Source of the DNA: Faecalibacterium sp. I3-3-89
Lineage (GTDB): Bacteria > Bacillota > Clostridia > Oscillospirales > Ruminococcaceae
Length of the DNA: 64,000 nt
Assembly (NCBI RefSeq): GCF_023347275.1
Contig: NZ_CP094468.1
Coordinates: 868,001-932,000, forward strand
Direction: 5' to 3'
Shown: positions 43,428 to 47,727 of the stretch, one piece after another
Layout of the letters: each line of letters starts with the position of its first letter
Position numbering within the stretch: position 1 is the stretch's first letter
Translations under genes and position numbers: made by a program
The notes under the pieces: generated by a model
Database searches by the model: none
Seen by the model: only the letters and a program-made list of their open reading frames with translations
Told to the model about the DNA's origin: nothing

Positions 43428-43452
43428 AGCGGGCAATGAATGGTAGTCGTGC

Positions 43453-43491
43453 AAAGACAGACGAAGGTTCCGCCCTCGTCTGTCTTTTTTT
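43453..43491 (+). terminator. Leader terminator before the DUF2798 gene
   Basis: A 12-bp perfect stem (43453-43464 with 43476-43487), then a T-run, between the promoter and the gene. It would release an RNA of about 55 nt or act as an attenuator. Confidence 0.8.
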
Positions 43492-43550
43492 GTGCGGCGA
43501 AAGTTCCAGAAGACATTTTACCCACAACCAAAAATGAGGAGAAAACAAAA

Positions 43551-44006
43551 ATGCCCAAGACCCTGCTTGAAAAAATCGTCTTTACTCTCGTGATGGCCGC
43601 GATCATGGTCTACGGAATGATCGTCTACAATGTCGCCCTCGCCACCGGCGGTGTGACCAACGCCACCTTCGGCATGGCGCTGCATGAAATGCCCATCATG
43701 GTGCCGGTGGCCTTCGTGCTGGAGTTTTTTGTAGTGGAAAAGCTGGCCACCGCACTGGCCTTCACCTTTATGCGCCCTTCGGATCGCCCCCAGTTCATCA
43801 CCTATGCTATCTCCCTGATGATCGTCTGCATCATGTGCCCCATCATGAGCCTTGTGGCGACCGTGCTGTTCAAGGAGCCCAGCTTTGGGACGTGGGTGCA
43901 TACCTTCGGCTGCAACTTCCCGATGGCCCTGTGCTGGCAGATGTTCTACTGCGGCCCGCTGGCCCGCTTTCTCTTCCGGCTCATCTTCCGCCGCGGGAAA
44001 CAGTGA
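43551..44006 (+). CDS. DUF2798-family membrane protein
   Basis: 151 residues from ATG 43551 (GAGGAG upstream). Four hydrophobic segments (about 7-30, 46-66, 82-106, 112-135) and the repeated family pattern MALHEMPIMVPVAFVLEFFVVEK / HTFGCNFPMALCWQMFYCGPLARF indicate two DUF2798 repeats. An integral membrane protein of unknown function. It stands alone behind a leader with a strong terminator. Confidence 0.8.
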   Translation: MPKTLLEKIVFTLVMAAIMVYGMIVYNVALATGGVTNATFGMALHEMPIMVPVAFVLEFFVVEKLATALAFTFMRPSDRPQFITYAISLMIVCIMCPIMSLVATVLFKEPSFGTWVHTFGCNFPMALCWQMFYCGPLARFLFRLIFRRGKQ

Positions 44007-44498: not shown

Positions 44499-44502
44499 AT
44501 GA
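44437..44502 (+). CDS. Possible 21-residue leader peptide coupled to atpB
   Basis: GTG 44437 follows AAAGGAGATAGA at proper spacing. The frame is 21 codons, rich in Lys, Thr and Leu, and its TGA overlaps the atpB ATG (ATGA, 44499-44502). It lies where atpI is found in many operons but is far too short and polar to be AtpI. Translational coupling to atpB is the likely role; the peptide itself may be irrelevant. Confidence 0.4.
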   Translation: MKTNHTLTLQDKTLLRKEAKR

Positions 44503-45182
44503 ACGCATTGACTGCGGCCCTGAAAGAAGAGCTGAACGTGGAGATGGTCTCCATCGGCGGCTTGCAGGTGCCGGAATCCGTGGTGGTGAGCTGGGGCATC
44601 ATGCTCTTTCTGGTGATCGTCTCCATCCTGCTCACCCGGAACCTCAAGGTGGATCACATCTCCAAGCGACAGGCTGTCCTTGAGATGGTAGTCACCACCA
44701 TCGACGGCTTCTTCATGGGCCTGCTGGGCGAGCAGGGAAGGCGGTATGTGCCCTACCTCATGACGGTGGCTCTCTACATCGCCTGCGCAAACCTCATCGG
44801 CGTGTTCGGCATCAAGCCCCCCACGAAGGATCTGAATGTCACCGCTGCGCTGGCACTCATGAGCATCTGCCTCATCGAGTATTCCGGCGTCCGTGCCCGG
44901 GGCGGCAAAGGCTTCCTGAAAAGCCTCACCGCTCCTACCCCCATCATGACCCCCATGAACATCCTCGAGATCGCCATCCGCCCCACCAGCCTGTGTATGC
45001 GACTGTTCGGCAATGTGCTGGGCGCTTTCGTCATCATGGAGCTGATCAAGCTGGTGGTCCCGGTGTTCGTGCCGGCCATCTTCAGCCTCTACTTTGATTT
45101 GTTCGACGGTCTCATCCAAACCTATGTTTTCGTCTTCCTCACCTCGCTGTTCATGAAAGAGAGCATCGGAGGAGAAGAGTGA
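44499..45182 (+). CDS. atpB: F0F1 ATP synthase subunit a
   Basis: 227 residues, five to six membrane helices. The essential Arg lies in [22 protein letters not shown], the conserved helix facing the c-ring. AGAAAGGAGG precedes ATG 44499. It forms the ion half-channels of F0. The operon order is a-c-b-(delta/alpha)-gamma-beta-epsilon. Confidence 0.96.
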
Positions 45183-45249: not shown

Positions 45250-45474
45250 ATGAACGGACTCGTAGCTCTGGGCGCTGGCATCGCAGCGCTGACTGGTATC
45301 GGCGGCGGCATCGGCATCGGCATCGCCACCGGCAAGGCAACGGAGGCCATCAGCCGCCAGCCGGAGGCTTCCGGCAAGATCCAGACCAACCTCCTGCTGG
45401 GCGCAGCTCTGGCCGAAGGTACTGCCATCTTCGGCTTCGTCGTTGCTCTGCTTATCATCCTGTTCCTGGGTTGA
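45250..45474 (+). CDS. atpE: F0F1 ATP synthase subunit c
   Basis: 74 residues in two helices joined by the polar loop RQPEA. The first helix has the glycine repeat [14 protein letters not shown]; the ion-binding carboxylate is Glu56 in LAEGTAIFG. Residues that mark sodium-type rings (Gln in helix 1 and Ser after the Glu) are Ile and Gly here, so proton coupling is expected. A 7-bp hairpin (45197-45213) and a strong AAAGGAG precede it, fitting the need for many copies. Confidence 0.96.
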
Positions 45475-45491
45475 TCACGGAGGCATGACGA

Positions 45492-45983
45492 ATGCTGACT
45501 CTGAATCTGAACCTTCTGTATACAGTCGTCAACATTCTGGTTCTGTTTTTGCTGCTGCGCAAGTTCCTGTACAAGCCTGTCATGAACATCATCGCGCAGC
45601 GCCAGAAGCAGGTGGATGACGCCCTGAACGCCGCCGAGACCTCCAAGCAGGAGGCCGCAGCGACCCTGAACGACGCGCAGGCTAAGCTGCGCAATGTGGA
45701 CGCCGAGGCAGCAGCCCGCCGCACGGCCTACGAACAGCAGGCCGAAAAGGACAAGCAGCAGCTGCTGGCTGATGCCCAGAAGCAGGCCGACGCCATTCTG
45801 GCCGAGGGCAAGGCCGCCGCTGAGGCCGAGCGCCAGCACAAGCTGCGTCAGGCCGACGCCCAGACCACCGCACTGGCCCGCGCCATGTGCGAGAAGCTGC
45901 TGGCCCGCAGCCTGAACGAGCAGGACGACGCACGCCTGCTGGACGACCTGTTGGAGAAAGCGGGGGCTGAAAATGGCAAGTGA
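45492..45983 (+). CDS. atpF: F0F1 ATP synthase subunit b
   Basis: 163 residues: one N-terminal membrane helix (about 5-22) and a long charged, Ala/Gln/Lys-rich coiled coil, the peripheral stalk. GGAGG precedes ATG 45492. The 3' end overlaps the next gene by 11 bp, leaving no space for a separate delta subunit gene. Confidence 0.95.
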   Translation: MLTLNLNLLYTVVNILVLFLLLRKFLYKPVMNIIAQRQKQVDDALNAAETSKQEAAATLNDAQAKLRNVDAEAAARRTAYEQQAEKDKQQLLADAQKQADAILAEGKAAAEAERQHKLRQADAQTTALARAMCEKLLARSLNEQDDARLLDDLLEKAGAENGK

Positions 45984-47713
45984 ATTCAGCAAGGAGTTCT
46001 TTGAGGCCAACCGCATCGTCAAAGCGGACCTCCGTGCCGCCCGCACCCCCCGCGAGGAGGATCTGGACCGGATCAAGAAAGAGGTCTGCAAGCTGTACGA
46101 CGCCACCGAGGTCATCCTGAATGTCACGGTGGACGACAGCCTCCTCTCCGGCTATGTGCTCCAGATCGGCGACCGCGTCTTTGACAACTCCGGCCGTCAC
46201 GCCATCGACCAGATGATGGCCGACAAGCCCTCTCTGGCCACCCTCAAGACCCGCATCGAGGACTACAAGCCCGCTGCCACCAGCGAGGAGGGCGGCGTGG
46301 TCGTCTCCTCTGCCGACGGCATCGTGGAAGTAGAAGGAATGGACCGCGCTGTCTACGGCGAGATCGTCACCTTTGAGAACGGTGCAAAGGGCATGGTGGA
46401 GAGCGTCGAGCCGGGCCGTCTGGGCATCATGCTCTTTGACGGCGCGGAGAGCGTCGGCGTCGGCACCATGGTCACCCGCAGCGGCAAGCGCGCGGGCATC
46501 CCGGTGGGCGAGGGCTTCCTTGGCCGTGTCATCGACCCTCTGGGCGAACCCATCGACGGCAAAGGCCCTGTCGAGGCTGTGGGCTACAACCCCATCGAGA
46601 AGCAGGCCCCCGGCATCCTCGAGCGCCAGAGCGTGGACACCCCGCTCCATACCGGCATCCTCGCCATCGACTCCATGTTCCCCATCGGCCGCGGCCAGCG
46701 TGAGCTGATCATCGGCGACCGCCAGACCGGCAAGACCTCCATCGCCACCGATGCCATCCTGAACCAGAAGGACACCGGCGTGCTCTGCATCTATGTCGCC
46801 ATCGGCCAGAAGGCTTCCTCCATCGCCCGCGTGGCCGAGGACCTGAAAAAGCATGGTGCCATGAGCTACACCACCATCGTGGCGGCGACCGCCTCCGACA
46901 GCGCCCCGCTGCAGTACATCGCCCCCTATGCGGGCACGGCGCTGGCCGAGTACTTCATGGCGCAGGGCAAGAGCGTCCTCATCGTCTACGACGACCTTTC
47001 CAAGCATGCGGTGGCCTACCGTGCCATCTCGCTGCTGCTCCGCCGCTCTCCGGGCCGTGAGGCCTACCCCGGCGACGTCTTCTATCTGCACTCCCGTCTG
47101 CTGGAGCGCTCCTGCCGGATGAGCGACGCGCTGGGCGGCGGCTCCATCACCGCTCTGCCTATCGTGGAGACGCAGGCCGGCGACGTGTCCGCCTACATCC
47201 CCACCAACGTCATCTCCATCACCGACGGACAGATCTTCCTTGAGAGCGCCCTCTTCAACGCCGGCAACCGCCCGGCCGTCAATGTGGGCCTGTCCGTCTC
47301 CCGTGTGGGCGGCGCAGCCCAGACCAAGGCCATGAAGAAGGCCAACGCCAACCTGCGCATCGAGCTGGCCCAGTACAAGGATATGGAGTCCTTCGCTCAG
47401 TTCAGCTCGGATCTGGACGCCGAGACCCGCCATCAGCTGGAACACGGCAAGGCCCTGACCGAGATGCTCAAGCAGCCGCTCTATCAGCCCAAGACCGACG
47501 CCGAGCAGGTGGTCATCCTCGTGCTGGCCTCCCACGGGATGCTGGACGATGTGCCCCTCGCGGAACAGCGGGCACGCACCGCCGCCTTTGTGCGTCAGTT
47601 CCATGCAGACGTGTCCGGCACGATGGACGCCATCACGGCCACCGGCAAGCTCACCCCCGAGCAGACCGACACCATCCTGAACGCATGGAAGGCCTACGAG
47701 GGAGGCGAGAGTC

Positions 47714-47727
<14 letters not shown>
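45973..47727 (+). CDS. atpA: ATP synthase delta(C-terminal domain)-alpha fusion protein
   Basis: 584 residues, about 80 more than a normal alpha. Residues about 1-85 match the C-terminal domain of subunit delta: ATEVILNVTVDDSLLSGYVLQIGDRVFD is the delta/OSCP signature. Alpha proper begins near LATLKTRIEDYKP, with Walker A GDRQTGKTS at 248-256 and the Arg finger SVSRVGG near 444. There is no stop or ribosome binding site between the parts; Met81-82 lack a Shine-Dalgarno. The delta N-terminal domain is absent from the operon. GAAAGCGGG lies upstream, inside atpF. Function as catalytic-head alpha subunit is certain; the role of the delta part is inferred. Confidence 0.93.

What the first reader, a model, noticed from the sequence alone, without database searches (positions are those of the whole stretch)
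45973..47727. ATP synthase alpha subunit fused to the C-terminal domain of subunit delta; no separate delta gene
The N-terminal ~85 residues carry the delta/OSCP C-terminal signature (VILNVTVDDSLLSGYVLQIGDRV), continuing without stop or internal ribosome binding site into a complete alpha. atpF and this gene overlap by 11 bp, so atpH is missing as a gene and its N-terminal domain is missing altogether. In known enzymes there is one delta per three alpha, delta's N-terminal domain holds the alpha N termini and its C-terminal domain holds subunit b. Here either all three alpha subunits carry a delta domain or a second, shorter alpha is made. The peripheral stalk connection must therefore differ from the textbook form.
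Basis: partly seen in the sequence, partly recalled or inferred. Interest (0 to 1): 0.82.

Follow-up and report, generated by a model that had tools for sequence, protein, structure and literature searches.

The report
Delta-alpha fusion ATP synthase, probably multi-stalk
A gut bacterium makes an ATP synthase whose alpha subunit carries the stalk-binding half of the delta subunit, the same design that engineers recently used to give the enzyme up to three stalks instead of one, so it may be a natural low-geared enzyme able to make ATP from a weak proton gradient.

Summary
The fusion is real: 45973-47727 encodes the C-terminal domain (CTD) of subunit delta joined to a complete alpha, and no atpH lies in this operon. 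"No delta gene" is wrong genome-wide: a second complete, Na+-type atp operon has a full-length delta. That delta is not the general answer, since 21 related genomes have only the fused gene and no detectable delta N-terminal domain (NTD). The kind is known: Ueno et al. [quoted passage not shown] The window protein aligns almost end to end with their solved chain (9jc1). New here: such fusions occur in at least 54 of 394 sampled genomes of the window's order, more than one origin is supported, full-length delta-alpha fusions exist, and a separate clade has a triple fusion b'-deltaCTD-alpha beside a separate b, which would tie a stalk strand to every alpha. Most likely mechanism: all three alphas carry a deltaCTD and F1 takes up to three b2-a stalks, raising H+/ATP. 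Architecture is shown; stalk number is inferred and untested.

The parts
44499..45182 (+). atpB, subunit a (227 aa)
   Evidence: PF00119 146.7 bits; NF004486 297 bits over its cut-off 272
45250..45474 (+). atpE, subunit c (74 aa); I and E-G-T at the positions that are E and E-T-T in the second operon's c, i.e. probably H+-type
   Evidence: PF00137 66.3 bits; aligned positions; the Na+ motif itself is recalled
45492..45983 (+). atpF, subunit b (163 aa)
   Evidence: PF00430 68.4 bits
45973..47727 (+). deltaCTD-alpha fusion gene (584 aa), overlapping atpF by 11 nt
46015..46221 (+). aa 15-83: delta C-terminal domain (b-a-b-b-b-a in the model)
   Evidence: PF00213 aa 2-81; AlphaFold2; Foldseek
46222..46290 (+). 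aa 84-106: junction plus alpha N-terminal helix (aa 88-97); S73-E106 is 34 residues here against 42 in 74 of 80 relatives
46291..47694 (+). aa 107-574: complete alpha (beta barrel, nucleotide-binding domain, C-terminal domain)
   Evidence: PF02874, PF00006, PF00306, TIGR00962
47714..48595 (+). atpG, subunit gamma
   Evidence: PF00231 290.1 bits
48613..50025 (+). atpD, subunit beta (start placed at the ATG of MIQGTII; the search used 48610, one codon earlier)
   Evidence: TIGR01039 782.2 bits
50025..50432 (+). atpC, subunit epsilon
   Evidence: PF02823 and PF00401

Best explanation
The operon encodes an F1Fo-ATP synthase of the deltaDeltaN-alpha type. Shown: deltaCTD and alpha are one polypeptide and the delta NTD is absent from the operon. 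Inferred: all three alpha subunits carry a deltaCTD; the NTD, which normally sits on the threefold axis and limits F1 to one stalk, is gone, so three equivalent docking sites remain, each able to bind a b2 dimer with its own subunit a. The enzyme then has more than one peripheral stalk and a subunit, up to three. H+ per turn becomes c-ring size times the number of a subunits, so H+/ATP is up to two or three times the ordinary value, and ATP can be made (or H+ pumped reversibly) at low proton-motive force, which suits an anaerobic fermenter. The same genome keeps a conventional Na+-type F-ATPase with an intact delta as a second gear.
For: The window protein aligns with the engineered PS3 deltaDeltaN-alpha chain 9jc1_I over 16-542 on 4-541 in one stretch, 572.7 bits. 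That construct gave one to three stalks by cryo-EM, about 2.2x a and 1.8x b, and H+/ATP 5.8 against 3.0 (PMC12229609). No delta NTD at E 1e-3 in 21 of 30 genomes searched, while the separate and full-length fused deltas known there were found. The delta part is under purifying selection: dN/dS 0.21 (window vs L174), median 0.19 in 46 close pairs. Natural precedent for more than one stalk: the PDB entries of Chloroflexus aurantiacus ATP synthase hold 18 alpha and 12 delta chains in 6 entries and 36 a and 72 b chains in 18 entries. In a separate clade of the same order b' itself is fused to deltaCTD-alpha.
Against: No stoichiometry, structure or activity is known for any of these natural enzymes. 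The window has the shortest junction of 80 compared (34 vs mostly 42 residues), so the PS3 geometry may not carry over. AlphaFold confidence at the junction is low (55-65). In PS3, cryo-EM particles with three stalks were rare and ATP-driven pumping was lower than wild type. The genome has a separate delta.
Confidence: 0.65

Rival explanations
1. One-stalk enzyme with spare domains: all three alphas carry a deltaCTD, but one b2-a unit binds one (or two) of them and the rest cap the head. The fusion only replaces delta's anchoring.
For: The operon has single a and b genes in the usual order, and nothing in it shows extra a or b being made. In PS3 the average was about two stalks, with three rare in cryo-EM.
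Against: In PS3 the same architecture took up extra stalks without other changes. The triple-fusion relatives carry one b' per alpha.
Confidence: 0.2
2. The full delta of the second, Na+-type operon joins the window's enzyme and restores an ordinary single stalk.
For: A full delta exists in the genome; G361, L092's and L105's genomes also have a second alpha.
Against: 21 genomes with truncated fusions have no detectable delta NTD. One of them, the An121 record (G125, same as G466 of the window's genus), has the fused alpha as its only alpha.
Confidence: 0.06
3. A mixed enzyme: some alphas lack the delta domain because of an internal translation start or cleavage.
For: Junction ATGs have SD-like tetramers more often than other internal ATGs (49 of 83 vs 179 of 1089). 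Cleavage cannot be tested here.
Against: Resampling synonymous codons gives 45.1 of 83; the commonest junction Met (54 of 80) lies inside the alpha N-terminal helix; in the window neither junction ATG has an SD-like tetramer.
Confidence: 0.06
4. A decaying or silent second operon.
For: The window's alpha sits on a long branch (0.83 and 0.93) and a second operon exists.
Against: All subunits are recognised; dN/dS against L174 is 0.21 for the delta part and 0.10 for alpha; in 17 of 20 related genomes the fused alpha is the only one.
Confidence: 0.03

Closest known systems
Engineered deltaDeltaN-alpha FoF1 of Bacillus PS3 (Ueno et al. 2025, PMC12229609; PDB 9jc1) and the natural fusion it notes in Acidaminococcus fermentans
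   Same: delta NTD absent, deltaCTD fused in front of a complete alpha, no separate delta in the operon; window protein aligns almost end to end with 9jc1_I
   Different: Natural, in Faecalibacterium; junction 11 residues shorter than the engineered linker in the alignment; a second, Na+-type F-ATPase in the same genome. The A. fermentans sequence was not compared.
Chloroflexus aurantiacus ATP synthase (PDB 9itj series)
   Same: Natural F-type enzyme whose entries hold 3 alpha with 2 delta, and 2 a with 4 b
   Different: delta is a separate 157-aa chain, not fused to alpha; its paper was not found in the library
Mycobacterial b-delta fusion
   Same: delta fused to another stator subunit
   Different: There delta is joined to b; here to alpha (model NF009961 scores 20.7 of 328 on the window's b)
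N-ATPase (Na+-transporting or 'alternate' F1F0)
   Same: An F-type enzyme without a separate delta gene, often beside a standard ATP synthase
   Different: N-ATPases lack delta and have a longer b (PMC5706428 passage), with beta-epsilon first (PMC5709465 passages); the 'alternate' models score below cut-off here

Membership tests
deltaDeltaN-alpha fused FoF1 (Ueno et al.) | delta NTD absent from the enzyme's operon | tested here: met
   PF00213 covers model positions 89-168 only; no delta frame between b and alpha
deltaDeltaN-alpha fused FoF1 (Ueno et al.) | deltaCTD fused to the N-terminus of a complete alpha | tested here: met
deltaDeltaN-alpha fused FoF1 (Ueno et al.) | no other delta NTD available in the cell | tested here: not met
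   Full delta in the second operon of this genome; met in 21 related genomes as far as the profile reaches. Not part of the engineered definition, but it matters for the window.
deltaDeltaN-alpha fused FoF1 (Ueno et al.) | up to three b2 and a per F1, raised H+/ATP | not testable with these tools
   needs native complex, cryo-EM and H+/ATP measurement
Canonical bacterial F1Fo (one delta with NTD and CTD) | separate two-domain delta encoded between b and alpha | tested here: not met
   for this operon; met for the second operon
N-ATPase | scores over the curated 'alternate F1F0' models | tested here: not met
   TIGR03324 571.9 of 750.5, TIGR03305 592.5 of 752, TIGR03321 62.7 of 224.7
N-ATPase | operon begins beta-epsilon, then a-c-b-alpha-gamma | tested here: not met
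   order here a-c-b-[fusion]-gamma-beta-epsilon
Mycobacterial b-delta fusion | delta fused to b | tested here: not met
   b is 163 aa with PF00430 only

The most novel reading that the evidence does not exclude
Multi-stalk F-type ATP synthases are a regular natural design in the window's order rather than a laboratory construct or a lone oddity. Faecalibacterium runs a low-geared multi-stalk H+ enzyme beside a one-stalk Na+ enzyme. In a separate clade of the same order stalk subunit b', deltaCTD and alpha are one polypeptide (735-757 aa where the start could be placed) next to a separate b, so every alpha is covalently anchored to the membrane and a three-stalk enzyme with three b/b' pairs is written into the gene.
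Probability: 0.55. Interest if true: 0.9.

Novelty: new member of a known kind. Interest (0 to 1): 0.74.

Why it matters
Known F-type ATP synthases were taken to have one peripheral stalk and one proton channel (subunit a) each. Ueno et al. showed by engineering that removing the delta NTD lifts this limit and wrote that natural multi-stalk enzymes await verification. The window and its relatives supply many candidates, including records labelled Flintibacter muris DSM 110149, Pseudoflavonifractor sp. 60, Acutalibacter sp. 1XD8-33 and Faecalibacterium sp. An121, in whose genomes the fused alpha is the only F-type alpha found. That makes the one-channel rule, and with it the assumed energy budget of common gut fermenters, directly testable. 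In the b'-deltaCTD-alpha relatives the stalk number would be readable from the gene.

Tried and rejected
A second, shorter alpha from an internal start: junction ATGs have more SD-like tetramers than other internal ATGs (49 of 83 vs 179 of 1089), which looked like support, but synonymous-codon resampling gives 45.1 (other ATGs: 179 seen, 178.7 expected).

One origin for all fusions: rejected (p 1.7e-10), as is one clade of the three full-length fusions (p 2.1e-51). One clade for all 28 truncated fusions was NOT rejected (p 0.42). With more rows the truncated label needs 5 changes, 4 of them forced by starred branches. Changes can be fusions or fissions.

A stand-alone delta NTD in sole-fusion genomes: none at E 1e-3. 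One hit at E 0.06 lies in an 809-aa frame of G127; two weak hits (E 2.7e-4 in G103, through five stops, and 0.0012 in G110) were not followed. Five rows of that profile come from genomes it was then run on, so only G035, G123 (two), G128, G133 and the separate deltas of G054 and G110 are independent controls.

A first dN/dS run over 1778 pairs (median 0.34 for the delta part, some above 1) was dropped as saturated; 46 close pairs replaced it. PF00213 missed one truncated fusion (G059, L112), so counts by that model are low.

Full report
WHAT IS THERE. The window is 868001-932000 of a 2.82 Mb single-contig genome. An operon on the + strand reads a - c - b - [fusion] - gamma - beta - epsilon, each recognised by Pfam over its cut-off. 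The fusion gene (45973-47727, 584 aa) begins inside the end of atpF with an 11 nt overlap. PF00213 covers aa 2-81 against the C-terminal half of its model (89-168 of 172), and alpha models cover aa 89-574. AlphaFold2 gives a helix (2-13), then strand-helix-strand-strand-strand-helix (15-83), then a helix at 88-97 where alpha's own N-terminal helix belongs. Confidence is high for aa 11-70 (87-94 per block) and low at the junction (55-65); much of the catalytic domain is poorly modelled from this narrow alignment. Foldseek: 49 of the 50 rows shown are chains of F-type ATP synthase entries, three of them chains of the engineered fusion 9jc1; row 49 is a thioredoxin.

SECOND OPERON. The same genome has a complete atpI-B-E-F-H-A-G-D-C operon at about 2446410-2453573 (-), with a 179-aa delta and an alpha of 506 aa from its ATG. 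Its c subunit has E and E-T-T at the aligned positions where the window's has I and E-G-T; the reading of these as Na+ and H+ types rests on recalled motifs. So one genome encodes a probably Na+-type F-ATPase with an ordinary delta and a probably H+-type F-ATPase with the fusion. 'No atpH' holds for the operon, not for the genome.

ORGANISM. Two genomes of the window's own genus give alpha matches at exactly the same contig numbers and coordinates as named records: G421 = the record of L105 (Faecalibacterium sp. An122) and G466 = the record of L080 (Faecalibacterium sp. An121). The window is therefore placed in that genus by inference; the species is unknown.

DISTRIBUTION. Of 119 genomes of the family, 80 have an alpha by PF00306. 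At least 13 genomes carry a delta-alpha fusion, and these 13 were read. Five (G019, G061, G066, G075, G084) have it as their only alpha and only delta match. A scan of named species genomes with an alignment of five truncated fusions gave 267 stretches and 224 relatives, of which 80 were kept as L032-L111. Titles include Flintibacter, Pseudoflavonifractor, Colidextribacter, Lawsonibacter, Oscillibacter, Acutalibacter, Anaeromassilibacillus, Pygmaiobacter and Faecalibacterium. In these 80 loci no separate delta frame was recognised, and a b frame was recognised before the fusion in 76 (not in L057, L062, L067, L078; two of these begin at the fusion). L032, L063 and L103 are the same contigs as L019, L018 and L025. 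In 394 genomes of the order at least 54 have a match from model position 15 or lower to 132 or higher in one stop-free frame of 579-706 aa (my count from the listing, which is cut, so a lower bound; it includes the window, full-length fusions and one tandem).

IS THE NTD GONE? I chose 20 of the 80 loci by hand (isolates first, plus some MAGs) and searched their genomes. 17 have exactly one PF00213 and one PF00306 match, both in the fused gene; the exceptions are those of L066, L092 and L105. A profile of 14 delta NTDs was searched in 30 genomes: these 20, the window's and nine of the family. It found the separate and full-length fused deltas known there. It found nothing at E 1e-3 in the 17 nor in G061, G066, G075 and G084 (21 of 30); one hit at E 0.06 in G127 lies in an 809-aa frame. 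An NTD too diverged for this profile cannot be excluded.

DO ALL ALPHAS CARRY IT? In those genomes there is no other F-type alpha by PF00306. 80 complete truncated fusions were compared (ten of 90 rows left out: full-length, partial, or with N; L018 and L063 are one gene, so 79 distinct). 73 of 80 real starts have SD-like tetramers. Junction ATGs have more than other internal ATGs (49 of 83 vs 179 of 1089), but synonymous-codon resampling predicts 45.1, so no internal start is indicated. The junction S73-E106 is 42 aa in 74 of 80 and 34 in the window; the same short junction can be read in L174 of the same genus. Mean column conservation is 0.67 for the delta domain, 0.41 for the linker and 0.72 for the alpha N-terminal helix. 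dN/dS is 0.21 (delta part) and 0.10 (alpha) for window against L174; medians are 0.19 and 0.12 in 46 close pairs.

MECHANISM. Ueno et al. 2025 (PMC12229609; outline, passages, Introduction and Discussion read) argue that the delta NTD occupies the threefold axis and so limits F1 to one stalk. Deleting it and fusing deltaCTD to alpha of PS3 gave one to three stalks with canonical b2-deltaCTD contacts, 2.2-fold a and 1.8-fold b, H+/ATP 5.8 against 3.0, and an equilibrium pmf of 68 against 133 mV. Three-stalk particles were rare in cryo-EM and pumping was lower than wild type. They name A. fermentans and two UniProt entries as natural fusions without the NTD and predict multi-stalk enzymes there. 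The window protein aligns with their chain 9jc1_I over 16-542 on 4-541, 11 residues shorter at the linker. A second precedent is Chloroflexus aurantiacus ATP synthase: 18 alpha and 12 delta chains in 6 PDB entries, 36 a and 72 b chains in 18; no paper on it was found. I therefore read the window's enzyme as a natural multi-stalk F1Fo. Shown: architecture, conservation, no detectable NTD in sole-fusion genomes. Inferred: three loaded alphas, stalk number, H+/ATP, physiological role.

EVOLUTION. In a 54-row alpha tree 27 of 28 truncated fusions group together with the window at the base on a long branch (89/97, not starred). Truncated fusion L021 and full-length fusions L014/L015 and L016 group with unfused alphas. 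One clade of all fusions is rejected (p 1.7e-10); one clade of all truncated fusions is not (p 0.42). In a 60-row tree window and L174 fall in a clade (95/92) with most other truncated fusions and two full-length fusions, L170 and L171; the order inside is unresolved, but the group fits fusion first, NTD loss later. Roots were not inferred. In 82 of 86 truncated-fusion loci where a c subunit was found, none has Q or E at the position that is E or Q in six of seven unfused-operon loci; 77 have M with E-T-A.

A NEW RELATIVE. Sixteen genomes (nine genera, four families) have stop-free frames of 736-784 aa. Ten were read (L163-L168, L172, L173, L177, L188): a b-type membrane helix and coiled coil, then deltaCTD, then alpha. 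Nine wider loci all show a - c - b - [b'-deltaCTD-alpha] - gamma - beta, epsilon recognised in five. Pfam finds PF00213 (within model 96-172), PF02874, PF00006 and PF00306 over cut-off and PF00430 in all five fused proteins tested, PF00430 over its cut-off in four (26.2 of 28 in the fifth), and PF00430 over cut-off in all four separate b proteins tested. In 13 of 16 genomes this is the only alpha; 4 of these 13 are under 90% complete. The nine rows in the tree form one clade (100/100). A protein search found 972 relatives; 118 of the 120 listed are 724-789 aa. If not cleaved, this protein ties one b' to each alpha and so calls for three stalks.

LITERATURE. Full-text searches bearing on the fusion turned up only Ueno et al. 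as describing a delta-alpha fusion, judged from listings and the passages read. [quoted passage not shown] the passages seen mention no delta-alpha fusion. No search found the b'-delta-alpha fusion, though none named it exactly; the library lacks most subscription journals and all preprints, so this is no proof of novelty.

VERDICT. The kind has been known since 2025 by design and by one noted natural case. The window is a new member, in Faecalibacterium by inference, of a widespread natural group whose stalk number is now worth measuring.

Noticed in passing
L163-L168, L172, L173, L177, L180-L188 (genomes of the same order): Triple fusion b'-deltaCTD-alpha (735-757 aa where the start could be placed) beside a separate b gene, in 16 sampled genomes by frame length, ten of them read; it would covalently tie one stalk strand to each alpha.
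   Followed up: partly
L162 (G233), 681-aa frame: Two delta C-terminal domains in tandem before alpha in one open frame; it is that genome's only PF00306 match.
   Followed up: partly
L014, L015, L016, L169, L170, L171: Full-length or nearly full-length delta fused to alpha, NTD kept, in several lineages; how three NTDs would fit on one F1 is unexplained.
   Followed up: partly
L028:4984-5448 and L030:4456-4944: Unfused delta proteins of 155 and 163 aa with a shortened N-terminal domain.
   Followed up: no
G068:C6:71660-72148 and 72501-72704 (L029): A delta-like frame followed by a separate 103-aa frame that matches only the delta C-terminal domain, both before alpha.
   Followed up: no
the window's genus: G000, G081, G361, G421, G466: Within one genus, G000, G361 and G421 have a fused and an unfused alpha, G466 only a fused one, G081 only an unfused one; the fused genes are of two distinct types (window-like and L080/L105-like).
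   Followed up: partly
window 43440-44006: Small frame upstream of atpB with a sub-threshold match to DUF2798 (21.6 bits, cut-off 23.5); no atpI was noticed in the window operon.
   Followed up: no
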